From Bacteroidaceae bacterium (GTDB lineage Bacteria; Bacteroidota; Bacteroidia; Bacteroidales; Bacteroidaceae): a stretch of 51,399 nucleotides of DNA. The notes under the pieces were generated by a model. It worked only from the letters and a program-made list of their open reading frames with translations. It ran no database searches and had not been told where the DNA came from. The DNA is taken from the NCBI GenBank assembly GCA_017540585.1, contig JAFYAT010000096.1:1-51399 (forward strand). Direction: 5' to 3'. Shown piece by piece: positions 33,043-49,403 of this stretch (within the stretch, counting starts at the first letter, position 1; every line of letters starts with the position of its first letter). A program made the translations under genes and the position numbers.

Positions 33043-33053
33043 CAGATACTTCG

Positions 33054-33260: not shown

Positions 33261-33269
33261 TTCCTATAT

Positions 33270-34032: not shown

Positions 34033-34039
34033 TTTTTTA

Positions 34040-34240
34040 AATTAGGAATTGTTTCTAATGAGTAATTATCAATGAGAAGTGAGTAATAGTCATTCGGCTA
34101 AGAATCGTTGACGGAACTTGTTACTACTAATTACTAATTATTAATTAATTAAAACGTCGGTGCTTGCCATTACTAATTGCTCATTACTCATTACTAATTA
34201 AAACTCTCCGGATGGCATGTTAATTGTTAATTTTTAATTG
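34040..34240. repeat. Intergenic short-repeat block
   Basis: Repeats of ATTACTAATTA, TCATTACTCATTACTAATT and TTAATTGTTAATT surround CATTCGGCTAAG and CTCCGGATGGCATG. The last phrase also occurs at 24513-24523. Nothing codes here. Confidence 0.7.
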
Positions 34241-34786
34241 TTAATTGGAGCAAGCATTTACGCTTGCTCTTGTCCAGTTATTGAGGAACCTGAGCACCTT
34301 GTCCTTGTTGTAGCTCTTGCCTTCCTCTAGGAAGCTGGAGTCCTGAGTGTGTAGCACCTTACCGTCGGCATCGAGGACCACGAATACAGGGAATCCGAAG
34401 CGGGCAGGGTTATTGAGACGGGCAAGCATTGCCTTTGCCTGTCGGGTCTTCTCCGCACCTTCTGACTTGCGAGGGTTGTAGTTGACGTGTATATAGACGT
34501 AGTTGGTGTCAATGACCTTGCTGATGTCCGCGTCGCTGGTGATGAAGGCAGCGAAGCGGAGACACCACGGACACCAGTTACCGCCCACCTGACAGATGAC
34601 GTGCTTGCCTTCAGCCTTTGCCTTTGCCACGGCATTGTCTATCTGCTGCATCGGGTCGATATTCTCGTCATACACTTTCGTGAGCCTTGTCTCCTGCTTG
34701 TTTCCGTCCGTTTCCTGGGCAGATGCAGGGAGCGTGCCCATTGTCATTGCAGCCATGATGGCTGCGATAATCTGTATCTTCTTCAT
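34241..34786 (-). CDS. Exported thioredoxin-fold protein (CPWC)
   Basis: The 181-residue product has a signal peptide (ending near LPASAQ) and a thioredoxin domain with GGNWCPWCLRFAAFI at about 72-86 and the cis-proline segment FGFPVFVVLDADGKVLHTQD. Such periplasmic CxxC proteins of the DsbD-gamma/thioredoxin_7 type act as thiol-disulfide reductants or isomerases. It has its own promoter box at 34807-34814. Confidence 0.85.
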   Translation of the reverse strand: MKKIQIIAAIMAAMTMGTLPASAQETDGNKQETRLTKVYDENIDPMQQIDNAVAKAKAEGKHVICQVGGNWCPWCLRFAAFITSDADISKVIDTNYVYIHVNYNPRKSEGAEKTRQAKAMLARLNNPARFGFPVFVVLDADGKVLHTQDSSFLEEGKSYNKDKVLRFLNNWTRASVNACSN

Positions 34787-34806
34787 GTTCTTCTCAGTTT
34801 TGTTTG

Positions 34807-34814
34807 CAAAGATA
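34807..34814 (-). promoter_or_regulatory. Promoter -7 box TATCTTTG for the thioredoxin-fold gene
   Basis: Exact TAnnTTTG match on the minus strand, 20 bp before the start codon. Confidence 0.6.
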
Positions 34815-34855
34815 ATGAAAGTTCAAAAAATGAACTAAAAAAATACAATAAATAA

Positions 34856-34887
34856 TTTGCCCGTATTGTGTATTTTTTGTAATTTTG
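34856..34887 (+). promoter_or_regulatory. Promoter of the 368-residue unknown gene
   Basis: TTTG at 34856-34859 is followed after 20 bp by TAATTTTG (34880-34887): both Bacteroidetes elements at canonical spacing. Confidence 0.75.
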
Positions 34888-34972
34888 CATCTAAAAGAGA
34901 TTCATAATATTCTCATTATAAAATAATTTATTATCCCACCCTCCGAATAACTATTAATGTAGTAAGGATAAA

Positions 34973-36079
34973 GTGGAAATGTTTAATATTTTTTTTATGG
35001 CATCAAAAAAGATTTTAAGTATTTCTTCAGTTGAAAAACTGGATTACATCAGACAAAGAGTCTGTAACATTAGTGAGGAAAAACTTCGTGCAGCAATCAA
35101 TACTGTCAGGAAGCAGAGAGATTTAGACGCCCTCATGAATATCTTGTCGAACCTTAACAACACGTTTGCTGCTGAGGAAGAACGACTGTTGGAAGATAGC
35201 GAAACCCACAACAAGAAGTATGCCAATGTCGATAACGACAAGTACTCGACAGCATACACGGTTTTGAACAACATCAAGCAAAGCGTATTTGCATTCTACC
35301 AGATAGTCAGAATGTTTTCAAAACAAAAGAGCCATGCCTTTTATGGCAACCGAAATGAAACAAAAAGCCTTGAGTTCCGCATACGACACAGCACCGTAGG
35401 CGACCTTGAGGTAACCGGATATATATTTGACAATCTTACTCCGTGTCAGAAGAGAGTCTTTACCGAAATGGAAAACTTTATTGAATATCTTGACCGTAGT
35501 CTCGGAATCTGTATAAGAATTATTGAAGAGGAAGAGTCTATAAGAAAAGATGTAACAAAAATACAACAATTATTTGAAAAACAAATTGAAGAAGTCTATC
35601 AGATTGTCAAAAGAAAAAAGGGTGGTTCAAAGGGGAAAACATTCTACAAGGAATTGCTTGAAGCTGACAGTAATCCGGAAAACGTACGAAAATGGTTCCA
35701 TAAAATAACACCCGAACAGATGGGTGATGTGGCAATAGGACTGAAAGACCAGCGTCTTTCAGAGTTCACTCCGTCACAGCGATATGTGTTCAACGAGAAT
35801 CCAGAGGCTATACGTTTCTTCGTTGATGTCGTGTCACATATTGACGACTGTACAGACAAGATTACAGGTGACACAATTGTGAATGTGATGAAATACACCA
35901 ACTGTACATCCAGCCAGACGGCTTTCTACGAGTGTTTCCGCGAAACATACATGCAGAATGGCGGAAAACATCGCGTTGTATCGAAACAAAGATTCAATCA
36001 GGCATGCACGGAACAGAACCATGGAAAGCAGAATAACTATGATTCGTTCGTATCCAAAATGGATATGTACGTGTTTTAA
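34973..36079 (+). CDS. Unknown helical protein, 368 residues
   Basis: I do not recognise the family. The product is largely helical and charged with no signal peptide or transmembrane segment: KLDYIRQRVCNISEEKLRAAINTVRKQRDLDALMNIL, then a central part with YLDRSLGICIRIIEEEESIRKDV and a basic linker KRKKGGSKGK near 215-225. The C-terminal half ends in a run that looks like a helix-turn-helix (NVMKYTNCTSSQTAFYECF). Either ATG 34973 or ATG 34997 (MASKKILS) could be the start. It has its own promoter and a strong terminator and begins the accessory region. Confidence 0.6.
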   Translation: MEMFNIFFMASKKILSISSVEKLDYIRQRVCNISEEKLRAAINTVRKQRDLDALMNILSNLNNTFAAEEERLLEDSETHNKKYANVDNDKYSTAYTVLNNIKQSVFAFYQIVRMFSKQKSHAFYGNRNETKSLEFRIRHSTVGDLEVTGYIFDNLTPCQKRVFTEMENFIEYLDRSLGICIRIIEEEESIRKDVTKIQQLFEKQIEEVYQIVKRKKGGSKGKTFYKELLEADSNPENVRKWFHKITPEQMGDVAIGLKDQRLSEFTPSQRYVFNENPEAIRFFVDVVSHIDDCTDKITGDTIVNVMKYTNCTSSQTAFYECFRETYMQNGGKHRVVSKQRFNQACTEQNHGKQNNYDSFVSKMDMYVF

Positions 36080-36101
36080 ATTACCTGTGAAACTTTCTAT
36101 C

Positions 36102-36141
36102 TCGCATCAGCATATTTCAATATATGTTGATGCGATTTTTT
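36102..36141 (+). terminator. Terminator of the 368-residue unknown gene
   Basis: TCGCATCAGCATAT and ATATGTTGATGCGA form a 14-bp stem with one G-T pair and a 6-nt loop, followed by TTTTTT. It lies 22 bp after the stop codon. Confidence 0.85.
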
Positions 36142-36143
36142 GT

Positions 36144-36298
36144 TTTTGTAAAGTTTTTTGAGTACATGAAATCCGATTTGTAAAGTTTTTGCCTTGTCCC
36201 AACCTTGAAAAACACACGAAAACTTTACAAAATCGAGAGATACTGTCTGAAAAACTTTACAGAAATGGTACATCCCCTCATTTTTGTAAAGTTTTTGC
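36144..36298. repeat. Five copies of TTTGTAAAGTTTTT in mixed orientation
   Basis: Direct copies lie at 36144-36159, 36177-36191 and 36281-36298; inverted copies (AAAACTTTACAAAA-like) lie at 36219-36232 and 36250-36262. The region (part of a 586-bp gap) is otherwise non-coding. Spacing is irregular, more like binding sites for a protein than a satellite. Confidence 0.75.
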
Positions 36299-36419
36299 TT
36301 CTAAAACTTATCAAGCCCCTGAATACGTGTTTTTTACGTTATCTCAAAAAATCCTCATACATTTGCAGCGCAAGTTCGGAGGAAAAGCCAACGCTGATTC
36401 AAGGTTGCAACTCCTAAGA

Positions 36420-36550
36420 TTCTCCGTTCTTCCTCCGTTCGTTCTCCGTTCAGTCTCCGTTCCTGAACGGACAAACGACGGAGAAGTGACGGAGAATCGA
36501 CGGAGAAACATCGGAGAACGAACGGAGAATGAACGGAGAACCGACGGAAA
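36420..36550. repeat. CGGAGAA repeat block with internal inverted symmetry
   Basis: The left half has four TCCGTTC units (TCTCCGTTCTTCCTCCGTTC and so on); the right half has about seven CGGAGAA units spaced 10-13 bp. The halves are complementary and could fold into one long hairpin or cruciform. The units are too short and too irregular for CRISPR. Confidence 0.8.
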
Positions 36551-36665
36551 AGCATTGGAAAACGTTCCTTTGAACTGCAAAATTGAAAATTTAATGTTTA
36601 ACTTTAATCCCGTGAAGTGTCCGACGGGTCATTCTTCTATGGATGGCGAATAGGGCACAATAGAT

Positions 36666-37631
36666 ATGGCAATTTTACGCGGAGCAATCAAAAAGATGAC
36701 CGGTTCAGCAGGTGAGTTTATGTTCCACTCTGAGAGTGGCAGAACAATCGTAAGAGAGAAGCCTGCATCAGTGAAGAACGTTCGAAGCGTTGCACAGCAG
36801 AGAACACGTATGAAGTTTACTAACATCATCCGTATGTACAAGGCTATTTCGCCTTTGGCAATATGCGGCTTTGAGGACAAGGCAAAGGGTGTAAGTGATT
36901 ACAACATGTTTGTTAAGGTAAACATGTATCGCACACCTGTTTTCCTCACAAAGGCAGAGGTGGCAGACAGGGCTTGTGTAGCAGCACCATACAAGATTAC
37001 AGATGGCTCTCTCGACAAGATTTTCGTTACTGGTAAGGGTGCAAATGCAGTAACGAATATTGACCTTGGCGGTCTTGTTATTGATGCCAACACTACGGTA
37101 GGTGAGTTCAGTTCAGTTGTTGTGAGCCTGAACACAGATTATGACAAATATGATTTGTTGTCATTCTACAGTGTGCTTCAGTACGTTGACGAGGAAACTG
37201 GTACACCATTCGTCAAGGCAAATGCTTGCTCAATAAAGCTTGACCCAAAGAATCAGGCACCTCTCTGGACTCTTGTCAACAAGGCAGGTTTTGCAAGCAA
37301 GAACGGGTTCCTTGCTCATGGTGAGAGTGAGGGTGATGGCGTGTTCTGCTGGGTTCACTCACGTAAGAAGGGGGATGGTAGTCTGCTTGTCAGCTCACAG
37401 TGTCTCATTGACAACAACACCATCCTTGCCGACTACACATCTGAGGATGCATACTACGATGCTGTAAACACTTACGGTGGCGAGCGCAATGTATTCCTTG
37501 ACCCAACGACATCAGGCAATGCTGCTCGTCCATCATCTGGTGGTAACGGCGGTACATCAGGTGGTAATGGTGGTAGCACTCCTACGCCTAATCCAAGTAG
37601 TGGTGATGACAACACAGGTGACAGCTTCTAA
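36666..37631 (+). CDS. DUF6266-like protein with Gly/Ser/Pro tail
   Basis: The 321-residue product begins MAILRGAIKKMTGSAGEFMF and continues with SVAQQRTRMKFTNIIRMYKAISPLAICGFEDKAKGVSDYNMFVKVNM, a pattern I associate with DUF6266 proteins of Bacteroidetes; the assignment is moderate. The middle is beta-rich. The last 35 residues are a low-complexity Gly/Ser/Pro/Asn tail. Function unknown. It stands alone between the repeat arrays upstream and the WYL cassette downstream. Confidence 0.65.
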   Translation: MAILRGAIKKMTGSAGEFMFHSESGRTIVREKPASVKNVRSVAQQRTRMKFTNIIRMYKAISPLAICGFEDKAKGVSDYNMFVKVNMYRTPVFLTKAEVADRACVAAPYKITDGSLDKIFVTGKGANAVTNIDLGGLVIDANTTVGEFSSVVVSLNTDYDKYDLLSFYSVLQYVDEETGTPFVKANACSIKLDPKNQAPLWTLVNKAGFASKNGFLAHGESEGDGVFCWVHSRKKGDGSLLVSSQCLIDNNTILADYTSEDAYYDAVNTYGGERNVFLDPTTSGNAARPSSGGNGGTSGGNGGSTPTPNPSSGDDNTGDSF

Positions 37632-38106
37632 CTTGCATTATTATCTTCATAATGCATGAGTTAAAAGTTTAAAAATAAAAGTTATAAGTTAGAGATTACT
37701 CGTATTACATGTTGTTATGCAATAACTTCTAACTATTCAACTCAACTTTTAACTGTTAACTGTAAATTATTAACTCCTGTATGAACAATACAGGTTGTGC
37801 CGCTCACCTGTGAGTCAAAAGACTGCTTCCATTAACTCGAAGCATAAGGTCATTACGTTGTTTTTTATAAATTCGGCAATAAACTCGTTTTGTTGCCGAA
37901 TTTATATGTTTGGATAGAAATGTAAAACATATCAAAAAGTAAATGCTGTTAATAATACTCTGCATTCAACAAAATACGTCATTAAAATGGATTTTTTAAT
38001 GGAATATGCATCAAGTAATTGGAATTATCCTTACATTTGTAACTGTATTTTTCGATAACGGCTCATTTTTCCCGAACCTATGCCACAATTTGGCGCAACC
38101 TTGTTA
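37632..38106. other. Intergenic region with hairpin
   Basis: No gene is seen. Bases 37640-37760 hold AAGTTATAAGTTAGAG-type short repeats and their inverted forms. A perfect 13-bp inverted repeat ATAAATTCGGCAA/TTGCCGAATTTAT lies at 37867-37905 but lacks a T run, so its role as a terminator is uncertain. Confidence 0.6.
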
Positions 38107-38114
38107 TACTTTTG
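38107..38114 (+). promoter_or_regulatory. Promoter -7 box TACTTTTG of the WYL cassette
   Basis: Exact TAnnTTTG match, 19 bp before the ATG at 38133. It supports this start over the upstream alternative at 38112, which would overlap the box. Confidence 0.65.
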
Positions 38115-38132
38115 CAGAAAAAACATAGAAAC

Positions 38133-39086
38133 ATGAACAACGATAGAGGACAAAGTTTGATTACCAAGTACGTCTGGGTGATAGATACCATCTATCGCAG
38201 ACACAATATATCGTTCAAGGAACTGAATGAGCTGTGGCTTAGCGATGATATCAGCAGAGGCGTGGAAATTCCCAAACGCACCTTTGACAGGTGGCGCAGT
38301 GCCATCTTGGATATGTTCGGTATTATCATAGCCAACGAGAATCGTGGCGAGTATCGTTACTACATCGAGAATAAAGAGGACATCAGCAATAACGGACTCC
38401 GTTCATGGCTTTACAATACTTTCTGTGTGAGCAATGCCTTGGCAAACAGTCAGAGCATCAAAGACCGTATCATTCTTGAGAACGTGCCGTCTGGACAGGA
38501 ATACTTGCAGCCTATCATCAAGGCGATGAAGGAAAACCGTGTGCTAAACATAACATATCACAGTTATTGGAAGGATGAGGAGAACAACTTTGATGTTCAG
38601 CCGTATTGCGTGAAACTGTTCCGTCAGCGTTGGTACATGGTTGCACAAAGCATCGATTCGTACTATTCTGAGAAAGGTCCACGTATATATTCGCTTGACC
38701 GTATCAAACATCTTCAAACAACAGGCGAGACATTCAAGATGCCGAAGGACTGGACGGCAGAGGATTTCTTTGACGGCTGCTTTGGAATCATTGCAGAACA
38801 GTCTGTCAAAATCCAACCTGTTAAGTTAAAAGTATCAGTTGGACAGGCCAACTACATCCGTGACTTGAAAATGCATGAGTCGCAGAAAGAGGTAGAGCGC
38901 AACGAAGAGTACAGCATCTTTACTTTCAACCTCCGACCAGAGTTTGATTTCCAGCAGGAACTGCTTTGGCACGGTGAGGATATGGAAGTGCTCGAGCCAC
39001 TCTGGCTACGTAAAGAGATTGCTGAAAAGATAAACAGAATGTGGAACAAATATAGTGCAAGCGAGAACAAAGACAAACTTGTTTGA
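38133..39086 (+). CDS. WYL-domain transcriptional regulator
   Basis: The 317-residue product has an N-terminal winged-helix part (SFKELNELWL...IPKRTFDRWRSAILDMFGI) and a C-terminal WYL domain (about 125-200: VLNITYHSYWKDEENNFDVQPYCVKLFRQRWYMVAQ, IYSLDRIKHLQTT) followed by a WCX-like end. WYL regulators bind nucleic acid or nucleotide ligands and often control defence cassettes (the BrxR/CapW type). Here it starts a four-gene unit with short gaps (49, 39 and 20 bp). Confidence 0.88.
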   Translation: MNNDRGQSLITKYVWVIDTIYRRHNISFKELNELWLSDDISRGVEIPKRTFDRWRSAILDMFGIIIANENRGEYRYYIENKEDISNNGLRSWLYNTFCVSNALANSQSIKDRIILENVPSGQEYLQPIIKAMKENRVLNITYHSYWKDEENNFDVQPYCVKLFRQRWYMVAQSIDSYYSEKGPRIYSLDRIKHLQTTGETFKMPKDWTAEDFFDGCFGIIAEQSVKIQPVKLKVSVGQANYIRDLKMHESQKEVERNEEYSIFTFNLRPEFDFQQELLWHGEDMEVLEPLWLRKEIAEKINRMWNKYSASENKDKLV

Positions 39087-39135
39087 TCTTTGTCGAGTGT
39101 AGCCTATATTATCAAAATACAAGGAGGATAAATAA

Positions 39136-39627
39136 ATGCAAGACTTTGCTGCAATAGATTTTGAGACAGCCAACAATGAGCGCAGTTCTGTCTGTTCTGT
39201 CGGTATAGTCATCGTTCGTGGTGGCGAGATAGTGGATTCGTTCTACTCTCTCATCCAACCGGAACCGAACTATTATAACTACTGGTGCAGTCAGGTGCAT
39301 GGTCTCTGCCAGGAAGATACTGAGGATGCCCCGGTATTCCCGAAGGTATGGGCACAGATAGAACCATTGATTGAAGGCCTGCCACTTGTGGCACATAATA
39401 AGCCATTTGACGAAAGCTGTCTGAAAGCCGTGTTCCGTGTCTATCAGATGGACTATCCAGACTATGAGTTCTACGACACACTTTGTGTCTCACGACGAGT
39501 ACTCCCACACTTGGCTAACCATCAGCTTCACACCGTTGCAGCAGCCTGTGGCTATGAATTGGAGAATCATCACCACGCACTTGCCGATGCCGAAGCATGT
39601 GCATGGATTGCAAGAGAGATATTGTAA
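39136..39627 (+). CDS. DEDDh 3'-5' exonuclease (DnaQ/PolC-epsilon type)
   Basis: The 163-residue product shows all exonuclease motifs: ExoI AAIDFETAN (Asp, Glu), ExoII LVAHNKPFDESCL (Asp) and ExoIII ENHHHALADAEACAWI (His and Asp). It is a stand-alone domain, the size of the small epsilon-like exonucleases, and cleaves DNA or RNA from 3' ends. It is the second gene of the WYL cassette, not near replication genes, so a role in that system is likely. Confidence 0.9.
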   Translation: MQDFAAIDFETANNERSSVCSVGIVIVRGGEIVDSFYSLIQPEPNYYNYWCSQVHGLCQEDTEDAPVFPKVWAQIEPLIEGLPLVAHNKPFDESCLKAVFRVYQMDYPDYEFYDTLCVSRRVLPHLANHQLHTVAAACGYELENHHHALADAEACAWIAREIL

Positions 39628-39666
39628 TAACCAATGAAATAATACATATAAAAAATAATCGATCTT

Positions 39667-40881
39667 ATGTTATTAGTAACTTCAGATAACATAGCTGCCA
39701 TAGAGAAATTCATCTCGAAAAGATGGCCAGATAAGATAGTGTCAACGCAAGATAATCCTGACGCTCAGTATTACAAGCTGGGTAACGAGATAGGTAGTGA
39801 AAGCGTTTATAAGCAATTCACCTATGCTCGTAACGTCATCCAGTGGAACATGAACTTATTCCTCGATGGCAAAGACAATAACTGGTCAAAGCGAGTTTCT
39901 AAGTATAGGGATGAGGTAACTGAAGGTTACAACATCGTGCCTAACTTCTTCATCAGCGCAAGGATGGACAAGGAACTATCCTACGATGATAAGATATATG
40001 AGACTCAGAAGGATAACAAGTTCTTTATCCAACGTCACTTTGAGAACCGCTTGTTCGACCGTGACACTCTGCTTATATACCACTACGATGTGAACTTCCT
40101 TTATGTCGTTTCACTCTATGCCCAAAATGACGATGGAGCAAAGCAACAATGGAAGGATAAGGTCAGAGCATTGTTTAGAAAGGAAATCCAGCAGAAACTG
40201 CAAGGTGACTTCAAGTTCTATGCCATGACTGCCCATCCGAATGTGGATGCTACCCAATACATAGAAGAAAACTTCAAGGAGGTGCTTGGTAAACTCTATC
40301 AGCCCTTCCCTAACAAAGAATTCTTCTCCCTGGCATTGGATTCCAACGAAAAGTACAAGGAAGAGAATGACAAGTTGCTGGAGGAACTGAAAAAGCACTT
40401 CTATGTAGAAGAATGCAAGATTGGTACTGATCCAACAGAAATCTTGGAGGAAGCAAAGGCAATCACCCCTGTGCCAGCCGGCATCGAAAAGCAAAAGACT
40501 GGTGTCCTTATGGTCATGATGGAGAACTTTGCGGACAAGTGCGTGAAGTTCCTACCTTATGGTAAAATTGCCATTGGTATCAAATATTCCAAGGATTCCA
40601 TGGCGATAGTCGAACATCTTTCTGAGATTGGTTACATTCTGTTCCATACTCGCAAGGATGAAGGGCTGCATCTGTTCGCAATCAATGGTGACATCACCGT
40701 GGTTGATTCGGACGAACTTGGTAGCGACGTTTATAAGAATGTAGGCACCACTGAAATGTATGCTGTAGTACCGTTCCAGACAATAGAACTGGATAGTAGT
40801 AACCTGCATTCAAGCAAGAAATCATTCACTCTGAAGACGAGATATGATGCTCAGTTTGAGGAACTAAATAACTTACAATAA
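39667..40881 (+). CDS. Unknown 404-residue protein of the WYL cassette
   Basis: I do not recognise the family. It is soluble, with no signal peptide. Features visible are an early RWPDKIV, a central LIYHYDVNFLYVVSLYAQND strand pair, KVRALFRKEIQQKLQGDFKFYAMT, the segment LGKLYQPFPNKEFFSLALD, a helical KEENDKLLEELKKHF, and a second half (about 285-390) with a mixed alpha/beta pattern (GVLMVMMENFADKCVKFLPYGKIAIGI, EGLHLFAINGDITVV). It lies 39 bp after the exonuclease and 20 bp before the giant gene, so it should act with them. Confidence 0.6.
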   Translation: MLLVTSDNIAAIEKFISKRWPDKIVSTQDNPDAQYYKLGNEIGSESVYKQFTYARNVIQWNMNLFLDGKDNNWSKRVSKYRDEVTEGYNIVPNFFISARMDKELSYDDKIYETQKDNKFFIQRHFENRLFDRDTLLIYHYDVNFLYVVSLYAQNDDGAKQQWKDKVRALFRKEIQQKLQGDFKFYAMTAHPNVDATQYIEENFKEVLGKLYQPFPNKEFFSLALDSNEKYKEENDKLLEELKKHFYVEECKIGTDPTEILEEAKAITPVPAGIEKQKTGVLMVMMENFADKCVKFLPYGKIAIGIKYSKDSMAIVEHLSEIGYILFHTRKDEGLHLFAINGDITVVDSDELGSDVYKNVGTTEMYAVVPFQTIELDSSNLHSSKKSFTLKTRYDAQFEELNNLQ

Positions 40882-40901
40882 TTTTTTGTCTTTACTTCAC
40901 T

Positions 40902-43900
40902 ATGGCTATATTTTCCAATATTCAGCATCTTATCAATGGAGTAGATATTGATACCCTTTTAAGTCAGATAGAGGAACTAACCAACGAACTTAAAAAGGAA
41001 AAAGCAGAAGCACGCAAATCAATATCCTCGCTATCTTCTAAGCTTGAACGGGCTCAGAAAAAGAACGATACTCTAAAAGAAGATCTTACTAGAGAGTCTA
41101 ATAAATGTCATATAGCAGAATCAAAACTTGCAGAGTCAGAAAGTCGTATAGTATCCTTTGCAAAAGAGAATAACGAGTTGTTAAAAACTGAGGAAAAACT
41201 TAAAGCAGACCTACAAAAACTTGGTGCATCAAATAGTAGTTTAAATGGCAAGAATTTGACACTCCACAATAAGGTTACAAAGTTAGAGGATCAAATAAAG
41301 CACCTTAAAGACGAGATAAATGCAAAAGACTCAGAGATTTCGTCCGTAAATAAAAATGCAGAAAGAATTGAAAATCGTCTAAAAAATGAAACTTCACTTT
41401 TAGACGAAGCAAAGAATCTTGTTGAAACTCTAAATGAGGATAACCAGCAACTCAAAGCTGAAATATCAATAAAAACAGAAGAGAACACGATTATATCAAG
41501 CGAGGTTGAAAATCTTAAGAAAATTAACCAAGAATTGAATGCTGACCGTGAAGATAAATTACAGCTTATTAGTGTCTTAGAAAAAGACATAAAAAAAAAT
41601 CAAGATTCTTTTGAATCAGTCACTTGTGACAACAATCGTCTCCAGCAAACTTGTGAAACCATATCTAATGACAATCAAGAACTTAAAAATAAAAACGAAG
41701 AACTTTCTGATAGATTTACTACACTAAATTCTGATTTTGAAAGTCTTAAAATTGAGAACGATAGGATTTGCACAGAACTGGAATTGCAAAAGACAGCCTT
41801 AGAACAAGCGAACGCGGAGAATTCACAACTTAAAAATGATCTCCAAACTGTTCAAAATGAATTTTCGTCAGCCCAAGAACAATTGGACGTCTATGGGAAG
41901 AATTTAGATTCTCTTCAATCTCAAATTCAGATACTGAATTCTGAAAAAGAAGAGTTAAAACCATATATGTACCTTATTGATGCAAAGAAGGAAGATGAAG
42001 CAAAAGAACGTGCACTTAATCTTGCAAAAGACACTTTGCAAGAATTAGTCGATAGGGCTAATAATGTATTGCTAGATTTGAAACACGATGAAGTTTCAAC
42101 ACTATTGTCATCTGCCATTTCTACTGCCCAAGAGCTAATAGACTCAGCTAAAGATATTGCTGCTATTGATGAAGCAAAACATGATTTAGATAAAAGCATT
42201 AACCAGGCGCAATTAAAAGAGCAAGAATTAATTGAAGAAGAGCTCCGGAAGATTAAAGAAGAAGAGGAAGCAAAAGAGCGTGCACTTAATCTTGCAAAAG
42301 ACACTTTGCAAGCCTTAATCAACAAGGCAAATGGTGTGTTGTCTGACTTGAAACATGAGGAAGTATCGGCACCATTGTCTCTTGCTATTTCTATTGCCCA
42401 AGAACATATAGACTCTGCTAAGGACATTACAGCAATCAATGAAGCCAAGCAGGATTTAGACAATTCCTTCAATCAAGCTCAATTAACAGAGCAACAATTG
42501 ATTGAAGAAGAACAACGTAAGCTTAAAGAGGAAGAAAAAACGAAAGTATTGGCACTAAACCAAGCAAAAGAAACTTTACAAGAATTAATAGACAAGGCAG
42601 GTATTGTTTTGTCAGAATTGAAACACGATGAAGTCTCAACACTATTATCATCTGCCATTTCTACAGCCCAAGATCAACTGAGCTCAGCTAAAGATATTGC
42701 TGCTATTGATGAAGCAAAACTTGATTTAGATAAAAGCATCAACCAGGCTCAATCTAAAGAAGCTGATTTACTTGAAGAAGAACATCGTGAACAGCAGGAG
42801 AAAGAAGCTTCTGAAAATGCTGCAAAATTACTTAGCGAAACGAGAAATGTTCTCACAAGACTTATAGATGAAGCAAAAATATACAAAGAGACCATTGAAT
42901 ATGCAGATATTGCTACTGAATTACAATATGTTATAGAGTCTGTAGAAAAATTTTCTGAAGTCAACAGTGATAACATACAAGAGATTCAAAGTAATATATC
43001 GTCTCTTAAAACCGCTTTGTCCAACGCTAAGAACGAAGTAACCAGCGAAAAGAAGACACAATCTCATATTGTAAAACGAAGCATCCTTGAGATTTTCGAC
43101 ACAAAAGAAGGTGATATTATTGAGTCTGAGAAATTCTTTAAACGACCAGAACACGAACTCGTAAGATGGCGTAGAATCTTTGAAGAATCAATTTTGTATG
43201 CTGAACATCGTTTCATCTGCACAAATTGTCGCCAAGACGTAAAAATATCAGGAAGGAAATATGAAAGAGGTCAAGTTGCCTTTTTTTCTCACCTCCATGA
43301 CAGTGACTTCTGTGAGATTAAAACCACGACTGGACTTTCTAAGGAACAGATAGAAGCAAGAAAGTATGGTCTTATTGCTGAGAGTGAGAGACATAAGAGG
43401 CTTAAGAGACTTATTCATCAAGCGCTTGAAGGGTATTCAAGCAGACAAAAGGGTGTAAATAATGTCGTAGAAGAAAAACGAGTTAATAGTGATATTCCTT
43501 ATCTCAATTGGCGTCGACCAGATGTAATGGCCGATTACAATGACATGCATCTTGTTTTTGAGCTTCAATTATCTACAACCTTTGTAAGTGTAGTAGTACA
43601 AAGAGATATATTCTATCGTCTTAATGACTATTTCATAATATGGGTATTTAATTTTGATGATAACGAGAAATACGTTGATCTCACAAACTTAATGTGTAAA
43701 GACATATATTACGCTAATAAGCGTAATGTCTTCATATTCGATAAAGATGCACAGCGAGAAAGTGAAGAACGTGGTGAACTGGTGCTAAAATGTAATTGGC
43801 TGGACATAGACAATACATGGCATTATTCAAACGCAAAAGGAAATGGAGATGGTGTGCTTATAACTCTTGATCAATTGAAATTTGACAAAGAGACATGTAA

Positions 43901-46900
43901 GCCATATTATTTTGATGCGGAAACCCCTTATTATGAGATACATCCTTCTGTCAAAGAGCGAATATTGAAAGAAGAACGCTCAAAGCAACAAATGCTTGAT
44001 GATTTACAAGCTCGTGCTAAACGTGAAGCAGAAGAAGCAATTGTTAAGCGTGATGCAGCATTGAAAGATATGGTTGAGAACAATGGTACAGTAACGCCAT
44101 TCAAAGAAGGAAATAGGTATGGTTTCAAGTATAACAATGTTGTTCTTGTTCCAGCTAAGTACTCTTCACATTCTTCCTTTGGGGAGAATGGAATGTTTAA
44201 GGTATCGTTTAATAGACACTATGGACTAATTGATAAGTACGGAAACGAATTGTTTGCATGTAACTATTTGGATTTTCATCGATTGTCCAATGGCATAATC
44301 GTTGCTGAAAACACAACTGGCTTTTATATGCATTCAGTTGGTTATCTATGTGAAAGAAGTCCTCATGATAGTATTTCATTAAAAGATTTATCTCAAGAAA
44401 TCTCAGTAATTAAGCATAACTCTTCTGAATTAGAAGTTTTTGTCATAGATGACGAACTTGTATTCAAAAGAGACTATAGATCTTTTGCCTTCTATTCATT
44501 AGATGGGAAAAAGATTACTGAGCATACATATAGTCAATACAAATTTTCAAAAAAATATTCTTGTATTTGGGTTAAGGATTCTGAAACGAAGCTATGGCAA
44601 ATAGTAGAACTTAATGGAGAACCTAGAAATGACAAATCATATCAGGAATGTACTTTCAACAACAATATTACTATAGCCATCAATAAGGGACAATCAGATA
44701 TTTATGATGCACAAGGCAATATTTGTATATGTACGAGTTACGACAGTATTAACGAATTTGAAATTGATGGTTATTACAAAGTAGCGAAAGAATCATTATT
44801 CGGATTAATAAATGAGAGATACGAGGAAATCATTCCTACAGATTTCTCAGATATTCAATTACTCGATTCTCATATAATTGCACAAAAAGAAGACAAATGG
44901 GGAATTTTTGATGCAAGTGGTAAAAATTTGACAGGACAAAATTTCGATTGCATAAGATCGTTCTCGGGCTATAAGTATCCATGTAATAACTGGCTTCAGG
45001 TTTCAAAAGACAATCTAATTGGACTATACAATGACAAGAATGAATCTTTATTACCAGTTGAATTTAACTCAATAAAATATGTCAATGGCTGTTTAATAGC
45101 CGAAAAAGATGGTAAATACTATTTGTATAATTCTGAAGGAAATATTCTGATTAATAAGTCTTTTGATGATATACAAGGTATCTATTCTACCAGCAATTTC
45201 AAGTGTTGTACTAGTAATAAATGGCAATTGTTTAATGCTGAAGCTTCAAGCTTGCTTAATGCCCAATATGACTCCATTTCTGCATTGAACGAACAATATG
45301 TTAAAATTGAAGACGAAGGAAAGTATGGACTTATGTCTATGCAAGGAGATATTTGTGTTCCAATTGTTTATGATGATATTGATCAGTTTGTACTATATAC
45401 TGGTAGATATTCAAGGATAAGCAATGAAAGTATATTCAAATGTAAAGACAATGATAAATACGGAGCATTTTCGATGGTTGAAGGAATGCTTGTTATTCCC
45501 ACAATTTTTGATGCTATTGAATGGTGGAATAATAATGTGTTTAAGGTCATGCAAAGTAGTAAATGGGGACTTTATGAACATTCGAAAGGCTTGTTGACGG
45601 AAATTAAATATCAGTCTATATCTAGTTTTAACGAATCTAAAATACAAGTTTCTGTAGAAGATAATTATAAAGTAACAGAAGGACATATTTCACCAGATGG
45701 AAAAGAAATACCATCTGAAGTTATAGCTTTCGAAGAAGGGTTGACCACAAACAAATTTTTCGGTAAATGGGGAGTTTTAAAAGGTTCTTCTATCATAGTT
45801 CCTTATGAACTGGATTCTGCAGCCGAAAGTTTTGGACAAGGACTTCTTAAAGTAAAGATTGGCGATAAAGTTGGTCTGAAAAACTTAGATAACGAATGGG
45901 TATTTCGACCTTCGTTTAGAGATATTTATGGGATTATAGGTTCTAAATATGTAATTGTTAAATTGATAAAGTACCGTAGAGAACGCAAGTATACATGGGG
46001 CAGATCATATCATATGGTTGATGTTGAATACAATGAGTTCCAATTATATTCAATTGATGGCTCACAAAAAGGCATACCTACGGAATATGTTAGTTCGCAA
46101 GCTAAAATAGAGTTTGTGAATGCATCTTTTGTGTGCTATAATAATCGTATTTTGTGTCTGAAAAACTTTAAATGCTCGGAAGGTACATATTATTCAATTC
46201 GGCCAATAAATAATGATGCTTTTGTAATAGCAACAAAAAGCGCTTATGATAGTAAGTTTGGCTTGTTAGATGCTAATTTACAAGAAATTATTCCTTTTGA
46301 GTATAGTTCTATAGAAGCATTTAGTAGTACATTATTCTTGGCAACGAAAAATATCGTTGAACATAATGGTTGGTGGAACACTACAACAAGAGAAGAGAAA
46401 TATTTATTTAAATCTAACGGAAAAGAATGTTCTATTGGAGCAATCAATACAATAAAGTCTTTCGTTGATGGAAAAGCTGAGGTAACTACAATATGGGGAA
46501 ATACTGTGGGGTTCATTGACGAAAATGGAGATATTATTCCTGAGGAAGAAAGTGTAATCAATAATGAAATTAAATTATTATATTCATTTGGCAACATAGA
46601 AATTAGGAAAATTTCAGGGGATATTATTGTGCCGATAAGCCATAAAATAGATTCAGTTGAACCATTAACGGATGGATATTATTTAATCCGTAAATGGAAT
46701 AAATATGGCATTGTTGGGACTGATGGATTACTTGTGGATTGTGATTATGACTCCATTCAGAACTGGTCAGATGGTATAGTGTTGGTAAAGACAACTAGAT
46801 ATTCTGATGATGACGACGACGATCGACGAGAATTTAATAATTACAAACTCTTATCACTTACAGGTTTCCATGTGTCAGAATACGAATATTCGGAAATCTC

Positions 46901-47207
46901 ATCCATAGAAAATGGTGAAGCCATTGCTACTAGAAATGGTGCTTTGGGAAGATTGAATTCAAAAGGTGAAGAGATATGTGATACTACAGAATGTATCAAA
47001 GAGAATATTTTTAAGCACAAGAAATTCGGTAAATGGTATGTTACTAATGCATTAGGTGAAGAAATCCTCCCTGCAAGATTTTCTAAAATTGAATTATTTG
47101 AGGATAAATTTATTATTGCTGTTGTTCAATCAAGCAATAGTTATCCTTACTCGTTGTCAAATTCGTATTTGTACGACTTGAAAGGAAATGAAAAATTAAG
47201 TTTTTGA
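40902..47207 (+). CDS. Giant coiled-coil / DUF6035-like nuclease / WG-repeat protein
   Basis: The 2101-residue frame has, in order: SMC-like coiled coil (about 10-360); four tandem 90-residue FIVAR-like helical repeats (367-716); a CoiA/DUF6035-like nuclease (about 724-925) with a zinc-ribbon pattern FICTNCRQD...FFSHLHDSDFC and a PD-(D/E)xK core RRPDVMAD (Asp near 874) and VFELQLST (Glu near 886); a helical linker; then many WG/KWG-type beta repeats from about 1063 (YGLIDKYGNELF, KWGIFDASGKNL, KYGLMSMQGDI). It ends at a TGA (47205-47207) inside a repeat; the same frame continues. G+C is low: 19 of 60 bases in 45481-45540, against 28 of 60 in a secA sample (2101-2160), which suggests transfer. 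Likely a nucleic-acid sensor or nuclease of a defence system. Confidence 0.75.
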   Translation: MAIFSNIQHLINGVDIDTLLSQIEELTNELKKEKAEARKSISSLSSKLERAQKKNDTLKEDLTRESNKCHIAESKLAESESRIVSFAKENNELLKTEEKLKADLQKLGASNSSLNGKNLTLHNKVTKLEDQIKHLKDEINAKDSEISSVNKNAERIENRLKNETSLLDEAKNLVETLNEDNQQLKAEISIKTEENTIISSEVENLKKINQELNADREDKLQLISVLEKDIKKNQDSFESVTCDNNRLQQTCETISNDNQELKNKNEELSDRFTTLNSDFESLKIENDRICTELELQKTALEQANAENSQLKNDLQTVQNEFSSAQEQLDVYGKNLDSLQSQIQILNSEKEELKPYMYLIDAKKEDEAKERALNLAKDTLQELVDRANNVLLDLKHDEVSTLLSSAISTAQELIDSAKDIAAIDEAKHDLDKSINQAQLKEQELIEEELRKIKEEEEAKERALNLAKDTLQALINKANGVLSDLKHEEVSAPLSLAISIAQEHIDSAKDITAINEAKQDLDNSFNQAQLTEQQLIEEEQRKLKEEEKTKVLALNQAKETLQELIDKAGIVLSELKHDEVSTLLSSAISTAQDQLSSAKDIAAIDEAKLDLDKSINQAQSKEADLLEEEHREQQEKEASENAAKLLSETRNVLTRLIDEAKIYKETIEYADIATELQYVIESVEKFSEVNSDNIQEIQSNISSLKTALSNAKNEVTSEKKTQSHIVKRSILEIFDTKEGDIIESEKFFKRPEHELVRWRRIFEESILYAEHRFICTNCRQDVKISGRKYERGQVAFFSHLHDSDFCEIKTTTGLSKEQIEARKYGLIAESERHKRLKRLIHQALEGYSSRQKGVNNVVEEKRVNSDIPYLNWRRPDVMADYNDMHLVFELQLSTTFVSVVVQRDIFYRLNDYFIIWVFNFDDNEKYVDLTNLMCKDIYYANKRNVFIFDKDAQRESEERGELVLKCNWLDIDNTWHYSNAKGNGDGVLITLDQLKFDKETCKPYYFDAETPYYEIHPSVKERILKEERSKQQMLDDLQARAKREAEEAIVKRDAALKDMVENNGTVTPFKEGNRYGFKYNNVVLVPAKYSSHSSFGENGMFKVSFNRHYGLIDKYGNELFACNYLDFHRLSNGIIVAENTTGFYMHSVGYLCERSPHDSISLKDLSQEISVIKHNSSELEVFVIDDELVFKRDYRSFAFYSLDGKKITEHTYSQYKFSKKYSCIWVKDSETKLWQIVELNGEPRNDKSYQECTFNNNITIAINKGQSDIYDAQGNICICTSYDSINEFEIDGYYKVAKESLFGLINERYEEIIPTDFSDIQLLDSHIIAQKEDKWGIFDASGKNLTGQNFDCIRSFSGYKYPCNNWLQVSKDNLIGLYNDKNESLLPVEFNSIKYVNGCLIAEKDGKYYLYNSEGNILINKSFDDIQGIYSTSNFKCCTSNKWQLFNAEASSLLNAQYDSISALNEQYVKIEDEGKYGLMSMQGDICVPIVYDDIDQFVLYTGRYSRISNESIFKCKDNDKYGAFSMVEGMLVIPTIFDAIEWWNNNVFKVMQSSKWGLYEHSKGLLTEIKYQSISSFNESKIQVSVEDNYKVTEGHISPDGKEIPSEVIAFEEGLTTNKFFGKWGVLKGSSIIVPYELDSAAESFGQGLLKVKIGDKVGLKNLDNEWVFRPSFRDIYGIIGSKYVIVKLIKYRRERKYTWGRSYHMVDVEYNEFQLYSIDGSQKGIPTEYVSSQAKIEFVNASFVCYNNRILCLKNFKCSEGTYYSIRPINNDAFVIATKSAYDSKFGLLDANLQEIIPFEYSSIEAFSSTLFLATKNIVEHNGWWNTTTREEKYLFKSNGKECSIGAINTIKSFVDGKAEVTTIWGNTVGFIDENGDIIPEEESVINNEIKLLYSFGNIEIRKISGDIIVPISHKIDSVEPLTDGYYLIRKWNKYGIVGTDGLLVDCDYDSIQNWSDGIVLVKTTRYSDDDDDDRREFNNYKLLSLTGFHVSEYEYSEISSIENGEAIATRNGALGRLNSKGEEICDTTECIKENIFKHKKFGKWYVTNALGEEILPARFSKIELFEDKFIIAVVQSSNSYPYSLSNSYLYDLKGNEKLSF
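42001..43050 (+). repeat. Four 270-bp tandem repeats inside the giant gene
   Basis: Units begin at 42001, 42271, 42541 and 42811. The first two share long identical stretches (CGTGCACTTAATCTTGC); the first and third share TCAGCTAAAGATATTGCTGC. The fourth is diverged. Each encodes a 90-residue helical module. Confidence 0.9.
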
Positions 47208-48755
47208 TTTAGGTCAATCACGACTTGTAGCAATGGGTTTTACATAATATCTAATGGTTCAAGATGTGCTTTATATAGTGATAATTTAGACGAAATAATT
47301 CCTTTTGACAAAGGTTATACCTCTATTTCCGAATGGACTAACAATAAATTTGTTGCAACGAAAATAGAAAGTTCTTATTACTCGTCTGTAAAATACAGTG
47401 TTATAATTAGTGCCTTAGGAGATGTAATTTCAAAAAAGTATTCCGAAATTGGGCCATTGCAAGATGGTAAAGCGCAAATTGTTCTATATAACCAAAAAGG
47501 CTATATTAACGATGAATGTGTAGAAATTGCAGAAGCAGAAACTCAAGGAGAGTGGACAATTAAATGTTTCCTTGGCAATTATTCTGTGTGGAAAGGTGAG
47601 GAACAGGTTTTGTTTGATTTAGTAGAGGCGTCGTTCTTTAGTCCAACAGTTATAAAGCTGAAAAAGAAGAATGTTAGATATTATAATCTCTATTCTTTGC
47701 AGATGGAGTCAGAATTATCATCCTCATACATTGATATTTCAGACTTATCTGACGGTCAAGCTATTGCTGTAAACATCAACAAATTATCCGGCACTATAGA
47801 TACTAATGGTATTGAAATCTATGATGAAGAAAGCTCTCTGTCTGACAATATTCTTGTCAAAAGAAAGTTCTCAAGATATGACATTTTTGTTGATCAAAAC
47901 GAGGTTATAAGTGGCGTACTAGAAGTTTCTCTATGGGCAACAAATAGGTTAAAAGTAAAGAATGAGTACTCGAAATATCAAATATATAGTATTGAAGACA
48001 ATACATATATAGGAGAGTCCTTTAGCAATATATATGACATACAAGAAGGTAAAGCCAAAGTCTTAAGAAATGGATCCACAGCATATATTGACATAAATGC
48101 AAACATTCTTCCTGAGATGTCACTCTCTATTGGAAACAACCTTATTAAAAAGAAGATATTTGGTTATTGGAATCTAGTTGATAATAATAACAACTCCATT
48201 ATCGAGGGCGAATATCGAGAAATAGGAACTTATAAAGGAAGATTCATAAAATTTGATGGATCTGACTTCTGCGTTCTTGATAAGAAATATACTAAACCAA
48301 TACCAGTAATAGGTACGTTTTATAGACAGTATACATCTACATTAATCTACCTTGTAGGAGGTCATTATGTAAGGATTCAAATAAAGAATTTGGAGTTAAA
48401 TGGAAAGAGTGTTACGGAGTATACAAAAGAACATTCCACTTTGAAACTGATTATAAATTATATAAATTTCAAAAAACAAGCTGTTTATGGAGTTCCATAT
48501 AAGGAAATGAATCCAAAAACATTTGTTCCATTTGAGGATAATCAAGAAATTGAAGGTAAGATTTATAAAGTATTACCTTTTGGAATAAGAATAAAATTTC
48601 AAGATGGACGCCGCACACTAATTCACAAAAATCGCCTTGCAGAAATTGGGTATCAAGATGTATTGTTTACAATAGGGCAAAGTATAACAATTGTCAAGAA
48701 AGGTTATGACGATGAGCATAAAGCTGATATTTGGGATATAATTCAAATAAAATAA
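47208..48755 (+). CDS. In-frame continuation of the giant protein: WG repeats and S1-like domain
   Basis: After the TGA at 47205-47207 the same frame stays open for 515 codons to a TAA. The first codons (FRSITTCSNGFYIISNGSR, then LYSDNLDEIIPFDKGY) continue the WG-repeat pattern with no gap. Residues to about 430 are further repeats; the last 75 (EIEGKIYKVLPFGIRIKFQDGRRTLIHKNRL...GQSITIVKKG) look like an S1/OB RNA-binding domain. No good ATG lies near the break; a TTG at 47457 is the first plausible start. I read this as the 3' part of one 2617-codon gene, broken by one nonsense change, or a second gene made by it. Confidence 0.65.
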   Translation, partial: FRSITTCSNGFYIISNGSRCALYSDNLDEIIPFDKGYTSISEWTNNKFVATKIESSYYSSVKYSVIISALGDVISKKYSEIGPLQDGKAQIVLYNQKGYINDECVEIAEAETQGEWTIKCFLGNYSVWKGEEQVLFDLVEASFFSPTVIKLKKKNVRYYNLYSLQMESELSSSYIDISDLSDGQAIAVNINKLSGTIDTNGIEIYDEESSLSDNILVKRKFSRYDIFVDQNEVISGVLEVSLWATNRLKVKNEYSKYQIYSIEDNTYIGESFSNIYDIQEGKAKVLRNGSTAYIDINANILPEMSLSIGNNLIKKKIFGYWNLVDNNNNSIIEGEYREIGTYKGRFIKFDGSDFCVLDKKYTKPIPVIGTFYRQYTSTLIYLVGGHYVRIQIKNLELNGKSVTEYTKEHSTLKLIINYINFKKQAVYGVPYKEMNPKTFVPFEDNQEIEGKIYKVLPFGIRIKFQDGRRTLIHKNRLAEIGYQDVLFTIGQSITIVKKGYDDEHKADIWDIIQIK

Positions 48756-48846
48756 GCTTATTAGTACGTATATTTGACATTATATTCGATACAAACAGAT
48801 ATTGTAAAGCAACATGAGAAGAAAAAGTTAAACTCGCTTTCTATAA

Positions 48847-48878
48847 AGACAGCCCTGTCCTCACGGATGGGGCTGTTT
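48847..48878 (+). terminator. Terminator of the WYL cassette
   Basis: ACAGCCC/GGGCTGT with an inner TCC/GGA pairing forms a hairpin followed by TTTCG. It lies about 90 bp after the last stop codon. Confidence 0.65.
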
Positions 48879-48929
48879 CGTAATCTAAATATAAACTGAC
48901 TCAACAAATGCTTTTTAACCAACTATTGG

Positions 48930-49106
48930 TGTCCGCTAAAAATCTTTGGTTATTTCATGGATCCCTTTTTTCTCAGACAGCCGATATAATGGACGTATAA
49001 ATACCTATTTTGATGATGTAAAGTGACAGAAGACGCCTCAAAATAGCAAATATGACGATCCAAGGTTAGGTTTATGTCATGTGAGGCGAGAAATTTTTAG
49101 CGGACA
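48930..49106. mobile_element. MITE-like element with 14-bp inverted repeats
   Basis: TGTCCGCTAAAAAT (48930-48943) is exactly inverted at 49093-49106. The inner part holds CGCCTCA...TGAGGCG, a second inverted pair. A further TTTAGCGGACA lies at 49270-49280, which may be the end of a related or longer copy. No transposase is encoded, so this is a non-autonomous or decayed insertion sequence. It fills most of the 648-bp gap after the WYL cassette. Confidence 0.65.
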
Positions 49107-49338
49107 GCCGTTGTCGTCTCTTAAAAAGGGGCTTGTCAAGCTACAAAAGCAGTAAATATAGGGAGAAAACTTGTTTTGCGAACAGCAATAAATGCAAATA
49201 GAGGGCTTACTGAAAAAGGAAAATCACTCAACTCCAGGGTTTCAATGGGTAGAGTGACTTTGTATGATGTTTAGCGGACAGTAATAATTTGGAATGAACG
49301 AGTAGGGAAGAGACAACGAAGAATGTGATATAAAAAAT

Positions 49339-49370
49339 GAGGGTGTACCGCATGTGATGGGTACACCCTC
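49339..49370 (-). terminator. Terminator of the xylE-like gene
   Basis: GAGGGTGTACC/GGTACACCCTC is a perfect 11-bp stem with a 10-nt loop; on the minus strand it is followed by ATTTTTTA. It lies 33 bp past the stop codon. Confidence 0.85.
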
Positions 49371-49403
49371 ATTGATTTGATGATTATATGTTGTGATGGG
49401 GTT

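What the first reader, a model, noticed from the sequence alone, without database searches (positions are those of the whole stretch)
38107..48878. Candidate undescribed system: WYL regulator, DEDDh exonuclease, unknown 404-residue protein and a giant nuclease/WG-repeat/S1 protein
Four plus-strand genes with gaps of 49, 39 and 20 bp share one promoter and end at one terminator, in an A+T-rich accessory region beside a MITE. Seen: the WYL and DnaQ-type motifs, the RRPDV...FELQ nuclease core with a CxxC/HxxH/C zinc pattern, long coiled coil, WG repeats and an S1-like end. Known: WYL regulators commonly control phage-defence operons, and CoiA/DUF6035-like proteins carry a PD-(D/E)xK fold. Inference: the giant protein may sense or hold nucleic acid through its repeats and cut it, with the exonuclease degrading products. 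I cannot match the set to a named defence system.
Basis: partly seen in the sequence, partly recalled or inferred. Interest (0 to 1): 0.85.

Follow-up and report, generated by a model that had tools for sequence, protein, structure and literature searches.

The report
WYL-controlled operon with patchwork defence cargo
This is not one conserved four-gene system: it is a regulator-plus-exonuclease front end that carries different defence-type genes in related bacteria, here a headless restriction-enzyme remnant and a giant nuclease gene broken by a stop codon near its end.

Summary
The genes are real and the gaps (49, 39, 20 bp), shared promoter-like box, terminator and MITE hold, but three corrections matter. 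(1) The giant ORF ends at an in-frame TGA (47205-47207); the S1-like end lies beyond it. Three relatives have the same architecture (zinc ribbon, PD-(D/E)xK-type nuclease, WG repeats, S1) as one open frame, so the gene is split here. (2) The 404-residue protein is the C-terminal half of a LlaJI-type restriction subunit without its catalytic motifs, so probably dead. (3) The four-gene order was not seen elsewhere. What recurs is the head: WYL regulator, often with the exonuclease (10 of the 16 nearest WYL loci in other genomes), mostly under a palindromic operator-like site. Its cargo differs from locus to locus and is rich in restriction-type nucleases (GmrSD, PLD, PD-(D/E)xK, McrBC, Mrr). The giant nuclease's WG-type relatives lie elsewhere, without WYL or exonuclease nearby. 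Best reading: a WYL-controlled, cargo-swapping defence operon, the giant gene a compositionally foreign insert now interrupted. The regulator class is known (it works like BrxR/CapW). The nuclease-WG-S1 fusion was not found in the papers I could search; no defence activity was tested.

The parts
38081..38097 (+). operator-like inverted repeat TGCCA-N5-TGGCGCA, at the promoter
   Evidence: 11 of 12 pattern letters, 0 of 200 shuffles as good; matched at 10/12 or better within 300 bp upstream of WYL in 12 of the 16 other loci (the pattern was read from these same loci); the only exact match in the genome for the looser pattern
38107..38115 (+). Bacteroidetes-type -7 box TACTTTTGC (consensus TAnnTTTG recalled)
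   Evidence: sequence; TTTG-like box aligned in most WYL loci
38133..39086 (+). WYL regulator, 317 aa (WYL + WCX)
   Evidence: Pfam PF13280 1.4e-14, PF25583 3.7e-11; 12-sequence alignment
39115..39135 (+). remnant of the ancestral WYL 3' end directly before the exonuclease ATG, behind a ~60-bp insertion that changed the last WYL codons
   Evidence: the 20 letters before the ATG recur at the WYL end of L053, with small changes in L049 and L056
39136..39627 (+). DEDDh 3'-5' exonuclease, 163 aa
   Evidence: PF00929 2.2e-21; PADLOC DEDDh 1.3e-25; PolC, DinG and DnaQ structures
39667..40881 (+). P404: C-terminal half of a LlaJI R2-type restriction subunit, without its catalytic motifs; first 31 residues of other origin
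40902..47207 (+). giant gene, 2101 aa to the TGA: coiled coil with three ~90-aa repeats, zinc ribbon DUF7830, DUF6035/CoiA nuclease, WG repeats
43080..43949 (+). zinc ribbon + PD-(D/E)xK-type nuclease core of the giant protein
47205..47207 (+). in-frame TGA that splits the giant gene
47208..48755 (+). TAIL: 515 codons in the same frame, WG-like stretch and C-terminal S1-like domain
48847..48878 (+). terminator hairpin
48921..49289 (.). MITE-like element, multi-copy in this genome

Best explanation
The locus is a WYL-controlled accessory operon whose head is kept and whose cargo is exchanged. Shown by sequence: the WYL gene, in most loci with a palindromic operator-like site, recurs at 55-86% identity in the 16 nearest other genomes, often with the DEDDh exonuclease, followed by different genes that are rich in restriction types. 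Inferred: the WYL protein represses the operon from that site and lets go when it senses single-stranded DNA from damage or phage, as CapW/BrxR do; the exonuclease trims 3' ends and may remove that signal or invader DNA; the cargo makes the cut. In this genome the cargo is a headless LlaJI-R2 remnant (very likely inactive) and a compositionally foreign giant nuclease gene. The intact form of that nuclease is a single-protein effector: zinc ribbon and PD-(D/E)xK-type core to cut, WG repeats and a C-terminal S1 fold to hold or sense its target. Here a TGA removes the last 515 codons including the S1 domain, so this copy is probably impaired, unless the stop is an assembly error.
For: Head kept: by blastn the window matches the 16 nearest WYL loci over WYL (starts 38062-38243, ends 39002-39132; in 8 of 16 the match reaches 59-71 bp upstream of the ATG) and over the exonuclease where present (39115-39136 to 39563-39634), not over the rest. 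EXO follows WYL directly or after one to three genes in 10 of 16. Operator-like site at 10/12 or better in 12 of 16 plus the window. Cargo swapped: 60 cargo proteins of 14 loci fall in 36 families; 0 of 91 locus pairs carry the same set, 57 share nothing. Cargo type: GmrSD_N 11, PLDc_2 5, PDDEXK_4 3, McrBC 1, Mrr_cat 1 of 60, against mainly metabolic or household families among the 25 of 85 shown for 61 neighbours of exonucleases without WYL. Named example: plasmid pE2-28, WYL / 3'-5' exonuclease / DUF262 / DUF262. P404: 27 of 27 full-length relatives carry GDSKYYK and the FE..DEL and DH motifs before it, while P404 begins inside that motif with DAQYYK; DNA identity to L009 (86%) starts at 39760; L110 hits RE_LlaJI over its cut-off, beside a C5 methylase, a second methylase-like ORF and an AAA_5 ATPase. 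Giant gene: DUF7830, DUF6035, WG and S1 all over Pfam cut-offs in three uninterrupted proteins (L092, L119, L128). TAIL: 0 stops in 515 codons against 44.8 in shuffles, codon use and GC3 like the giant gene; S1 end matches L092 (4e-5), WG part matches L119 (6e-9).
Against: The exonuclease is not an obligate partner: 17 of 20 other high-identity exonuclease loci have no WYL hit at 1e-20, and 6 of 16 WYL loci lack it (one, L062, is cut by a contig end). Four of 16 WYL loci lack a good operator match and two have it far upstream; 5 more sites of that quality lie elsewhere in the window, and with one mismatch the pattern is only modestly commoner in the genome than its control (44 against 31). No expression, binding or phage data. 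The genome is an unfinished assembly (149 contigs, 86% complete), so the TGA could be an error. The control set also holds a PLD gene 84% like a cargo gene, an EcoRI-type methylase and two Fic proteins, and was not scanned against PADLOC.
Confidence: 0.72

Rival explanations
1. The four genes are one undescribed defence system acting together.
For: Tight spacing, one promoter-like box, one terminator.
Against: The giant nuclease core occurs in only 3 other genomes of 301 in the family, and none of these has a WYL or exonuclease match in the ~18-20 kb fetched around it (L045, L046, L047), so the order occurs in none of them; P404 has no catalytic core; the giant gene differs in composition.
Confidence: 0.07
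2. The TGA is a sequencing or assembly error, or a strain variant; the giant protein is made as one chain with the S1 end and works as a nuclease.
For: Frame behind the stop is clean for 515 codons and has the same GC3 and codon use; three relatives are uninterrupted.
Against: The TGA stands in the only sequence held; no second copy of the nuclease core in the genome.
Confidence: 0.4
3. [quoted passage not shown]
For: 404 codons still open with host-like GC3 0.51.
Against: The seven other matches that cover residues ~32-393 or more all lie in frames of 710-727 residues, and no match reaches residues 1-11. Some shorter frames among the matches were not read.
Confidence: 0.12
4. The exonuclease is simply a household DnaQ-like gene that happens to lie behind WYL.
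For: 161 of 301 family genomes have one at E<=1e-50, mostly one per genome; 17 of 20 further loci without WYL.
Against: 10 of 16 nearest WYL loci have it directly or one to three genes behind WYL; WYL-3'-end-like letters stand before it in the window and in some loci without a whole WYL gene, such as L081; also on plasmid pE2-28.
Confidence: 0.25

Closest known systems
BrxR / CapW WYL repressors of phage-defence operons (PMC9122601 passages, PMC13373217 passages, PMC9122588 start of abstract only)
   Same: WYL+WCX regulator as first gene, inverted repeat at its own promoter, different defence genes downstream
   Different: repeat arms are short (4-5 bp; BrxR's are 11 bp, with the same 5-bp spacer); sequence match to solved WYL proteins is weak (best 4.8e-06, PafBC); a DEDDh exonuclease often follows; ssDNA sensing untested
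LlaJI restriction-modification system (PMC1459862, abstract and passages)
   Same: P404 relatives: C5 methylases, McrB-like ATPase, PD-(D/E)xK R2 subunit
   Different: P404 keeps only the half behind the catalytic motif and has no methylase or ATPase beside it
DUF6035 family (with DUF7830; CoiA-like nuclease)
   Same: zinc ribbon, RPDV...FELQ nuclease core
   Different: most relatives read have about 430-610 residues and, to judge by their length and sequence, no WG/S1 part; here fused to WG repeats and S1, and to a ~720-residue coiled coil seen in none of the three WG-type relatives
GmrSD (type IV restriction)
   Same: most frequent cargo of the same WYL head (11 of 60)
   Different: absent from this locus; the first 31 residues of P404 only weakly resemble the start of a GmrSD_N/DUF7834 cargo gene

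Membership tests
BrxR/CapW-type WYL regulator | WYL and WCX domains | tested here: met
   both over the Pfam cut-off
BrxR/CapW-type WYL regulator | N-terminal winged HTH | tested here: inconclusive
   no HTH hit in Pfam; the N-terminal ~75 residues are well conserved
BrxR/CapW-type WYL regulator | inverted repeat at its promoter | tested here: met
   shorter arms than BrxR's; binding not tested
BrxR/CapW-type WYL regulator | adjacent defence genes | tested here: met
   (by annotation and profile, not by function)
BrxR/CapW-type WYL regulator | ssDNA-relieved repression | not testable with these tools
   needs biochemistry
LlaJI R2 (P404) | PD-(D/E)xK catalytic motif | tested here: not met
   motif region absent, DSK replaced by DAQ; present in 27 of 27 full-length relatives
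LlaJI R2 (P404) | partner methylases and McrB-like ATPase beside it | tested here: not met
   none in the operon; present in relatives
DUF6035-WG-S1 nuclease (giant) | DUF7830 + DUF6035 with conserved CxxC/H/C and PDV/ExQ residues | tested here: met
DUF6035-WG-S1 nuclease (giant) | WG repeats | tested here: met
   PF14903 2.7e-25
DUF6035-WG-S1 nuclease (giant) | C-terminal S1 in the same chain | tested here: not met
   TGA 47205-47207 before it; S1-like part in TAIL, Pfam 15.3 bits under the cut-off of 22, BLASTP 4e-5 to L092
DEDDh exonuclease | RNase_T domain and D-E-D-H-D residues | tested here: met
   (domain); residues read by eye: DFET, HNKPFD, HHHALADAEA
named PADLOC defence system | all parts of one listed system | tested here: not met
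   WYL, Cas3c/WYL, DEDDh/PDC-S48, a weak RTasSbcB and two weak coiled-coil-region models only; P404 and the last ORF none

The most novel reading that the evidence does not exclude
The WYL regulator and the DEDDh exonuclease form a standard 'socket' for plug-in defence genes in Prevotella-type Bacteroidales: the WYL protein senses ssDNA and opens the operon, the exonuclease degrades the ssDNA and closes it again, and any nuclease placed behind is put under damage control. The giant gene is a separate new effector class, a single-chain nuclease whose WG-repeat propeller and S1 fold recognise an invader nucleic acid or ribosome-bound RNA.
Probability: 0.25. Interest if true: 0.72.

Novelty: new variant of a known kind. 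Interest (0 to 1): 0.5.

Why it matters
If right, one small regulator-exonuclease pair marks a place from which restriction-type genes of these bacteria can be mined (36 cargo families in 14 loci, 27 of them seen once), and it offers a testable idea for how such cargo is kept silent. The nuclease-WG-S1 chain is a compact, recurring architecture for which I found no described function. It also warns that a tight operon with one promoter and one terminator need not be one system.

Tried and rejected
Considered and rejected: (a) one four-gene system, see rivals; (b) P404 as an unknown family: libraries gave nothing for it, nor for three of its four relatives first scanned in Pfam beyond weak chance hits, but one later relative, L110, hits RE_LlaJI (L108 does not) and the neighbours agree; (c) clean empty site: the sister genome G315 matches the right flank from 49299 on (94%) but not the left flank within its fetched 15 kb, so no empty site could be shown; (d) P404's first 31 residues from a GmrSD/DUF7834 cargo gene: 2, 3 and 11 of 1000 shuffles as good, but over 10-14 residues only and with no clear DNA match, left as a hint; (e) Rfam, gathering thresholds, 33000-49400: nothing; (f) giant nuclease against solved-structure sequences: nothing up to E 1; (g) papers: DUF6035 1 paper, unrelated by its listing; 'WG repeat' + nuclease 14 papers, 10 listed, none on this by listing; WG repeat protein names 3 papers, none on this by listing; WYL + DUF262 4 papers, listing only. 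That the fusion and the WYL-exonuclease pair are undescribed rests on the listings in this library only; some searches listed only 15 of 136, 15 of 778 and 8 of 45 papers.

Limits of the counts: the 16 WYL loci are the 16 best other-genome hits, 301 genomes. Of 66 automatically chosen cargo ORFs I left out 13 (short, doubtful or far) and added 7 by eye (L051, L056, L060), giving 60; L053 and L059 gave none. Of 81 control ORFs I gave 61. The family tables show 25 of 29, 85 and 84 families. L082 counts as WYL-less though a WYL-like 3' end runs off its contig edge; L084 has only a distant WYL (35%) and is counted as having one.
Full report
What is there. The window belongs to an unfinished genome of 149 contigs, 86% complete. 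Four plus-strand ORFs lie at 38112-39086, 39136-39627, 39667-40881 and 40902-47207, with gaps of 49, 39 and 20 bp, and a fifth open stretch runs in the giant gene's frame from 47208 to 48755. The promoter-like box TACTTTTGC (Bacteroidetes consensus recalled) lies over the TTG that the ORF finder took as the WYL start, so the ATG at 38133 is the likelier start. The operon ends at a strong hairpin, 48847-48878, before a multi-copy MITE-like element.

The giant gene is split. The 2101-residue ORF ends at TGA 47205-47207. The 515 codons behind it contain no other stop (44.8 expected from shuffles), use codons more like the giant gene (mean log P -3.79 against -4.06 and -4.04 in the other frames) and have the same GC3 (0.258 against 0.257), so both were probably one gene until recently. 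Three uninterrupted relatives show what it should look like: DUF7830, DUF6035, WG repeats and a C-terminal S1 domain, each over the Pfam cut-off, in 1296 (L092), 1523 (L119) and 1466 residues (L128, plasmid pE2-28). The end of the TAIL matches the S1 end of the 1296-residue relative (BLASTP 4e-5) and its WG part the 1523-residue one (tblastn 6e-9); Pfam alone scores the S1 under its cut-off. The three begin with the zinc ribbon and lack the ~720-residue coiled coil with its three ~90-residue repeats.

The nuclease core looks intact. In an alignment of the window with 14 relatives of 26-58% identity the zinc positions (C47, C50, H71, C78) and the nuclease positions (E101, H105, D148, E161, Q163) are invariant. 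It is E-x-Q, not E-x-K, at the last motif.

The 404-residue protein is a remnant. It is matched in 45 of 301 family genomes, its own included, from about residue 31 on, and the seven other matches that reach residue 393 or beyond lie in frames of 710-727 residues. Of 27 full-length relatives, 27 have FE..DEL, DH and GDSKYYK motifs, a PD-(D/E)xK-type core; P404 begins inside the last motif with DAQYYK. DNA identity to the intact gene in L009 (86%) starts at 39760. One relative, L110, hits RE_LlaJI (29.0 bits, cut-off 23.6; L108 does not) and stands behind a C5-cytosine methylase, a second methylase-like ORF and an AAA_5 ATPase; a Pedobacter plasmid shows two methylases, an AAA ATPase and the relative by its annotation. 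LlaJI R2 carries the PD-D/ExK motif (PMC1459862, abstract and passages). The same genome holds a relative with the motif elsewhere (contig 140) beside an AAA_5 ATPase and a Vsr gene.

The head is what recurs. WYL relatives occur in 192 of 301 family genomes. In the 16 best other genomes the DNA match covers WYL (in 8 of 16 with 59-71 bp upstream of the ATG) and, where present, the exonuclease; none of the 16 holds P404, the giant nuclease core or the tail in the 10-19 kb fetched. The exonuclease follows WYL in 10 of 16, directly or after one to three genes. In the window a ~60-bp insertion changed the last WYL codons, and the old WYL end still stands before the exonuclease ATG. The palindrome TGCCA-N5-TGGCGTA matches at 10 of 12 letters or better upstream of WYL in the window and 12 of 16 loci (10 of these 12 at -38 to -78; L059 and L060 further away), and fails in L058, L061, L062 and L064. 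Background: 34 such matches on both strands in 305 kb of exonuclease loci, and 5 elsewhere in the window; genome-wide, one exact match, and 44 with up to one mismatch against 31 in the control. The pattern was read from these loci and they share ancestry, so this supports constraint but does not prove an operator.

The cargo is swapped. Sixty cargo proteins from 14 loci form 36 families; no two loci carry the same set and 57 of 91 pairs share none. Eleven match GmrSD_N, five PLDc_2, three PDDEXK_4, three RhuM, three tubulin-type GTPase, two Fic, one each McrBC and Mrr_cat, and several hit PADLOC models such as HEC-06 (9), SspE (6) and PDC-S05 (3). Among the 25 of 85 families shown for the neighbours of exonucleases without WYL, most are metabolic or household, with exceptions such as an EcoRI-type methylase and two Fic proteins, and one neighbour is a PLD gene 84% like a cargo gene. 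This control was not run against PADLOC. Plasmid pE2-28 gives a named, complete case: WYL, 3'-5' exonuclease, DUF262, DUF262, and about 24 kb away on the same plasmid the 1466-residue DUF6035-WG-S1 protein behind a LytTR regulator and one unknown gene, not in the WYL operon.

Results against my reading. The exonuclease is common on its own: 161 of 301 family genomes at E<=1e-50, and 17 of 20 further loci with no WYL hit at 1e-20. So it may be a household gene beside WYL. Nuclease-WG-S1 proteins are rare: of 301 family genomes, 4 match the nuclease core by sequence and 5 by profile, and 3, the window's own included, have frames over 1000 residues; in 344 genomes of the order, 9 match and one more long frame (L119) appears. 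The other relatives read have about 430-610 residues. A named relative on a plasmid of pE2-28 was found only by another search, so the genome counts are lower bounds for distant forms.

How it most likely works. CapW/BrxR repress their operons until they bind ssDNA (PMC13373217, passage); BrxR binds an 11-bp inverted repeat with a 5-bp spacer at its promoter (PMC9122601, passages). By analogy the WYL protein here holds the operon shut from 38081-38097 and opens it when ssDNA appears. The exonuclease could then attack free 3' ends and remove the signal. The cargo does the damage to the invader. Shown: gene content, conservation, operator-like site, cargo exchange, lost motifs, split gene in this assembly. 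Inferred: repression, ssDNA sensing, exonuclease role, defence. Whether the giant protein still acts without its S1 end is open.

Verdict. The finding pointed at a real, interesting locus but drew the wrong unit. It is a new variant of a known kind (WYL-controlled variable defence operon) with one unusual effector architecture, damaged in this copy.

Noticed in passing
window 48921-49289: MITE-like element with 24-nt inverted ends; 14 matches in the genome including itself, a second near-complete copy at 94% on contig 60.
   Followed up: yes
L063 (own genome contig 140) 3194-8239: LlaJI-type restriction subunit of 780 aa with its motif, beside an AAA_5 ATPase and a Vsr gene: the same genome holds an intact-looking relative of P404.
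   Followed up: partly
L125 and L128/L131, plasmid pE2-28 of Prevotella sp. E2-28: One plasmid carries both a WYL-exonuclease-DUF262-DUF262 operon and, about 24 kb away, a DUF6035-WG-S1 protein behind a LytTR regulator.
   Followed up: partly
window 42006-42820 (residues ~369-640 of the giant protein): Three tandem ~90-residue helical repeats, about 72-73% identical in pairs, in the coiled coil: a recent internal duplication.
   Followed up: no
L048, L050, L051, L052: A family of 240-363-residue cargo proteins sits between WYL and the exonuclease in four loci; the L048 member has no Pfam hit, the L050 member a weak YopX hit.
   Followed up: no
L092 7752-9962: Beside the 1296-residue nuclease-WG-S1 gene, on what looks by eye like a mobilizable element, lie a YhcG-type PD-(D/E)xK nuclease and a 350-residue protein without Pfam hit.
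   Followed up: no
window 34973-36079: A 368-residue ORF upstream of the operon without a family over cut-off in Pfam, and without a hit in NCBIfam or PHROGs.
   Followed up: no
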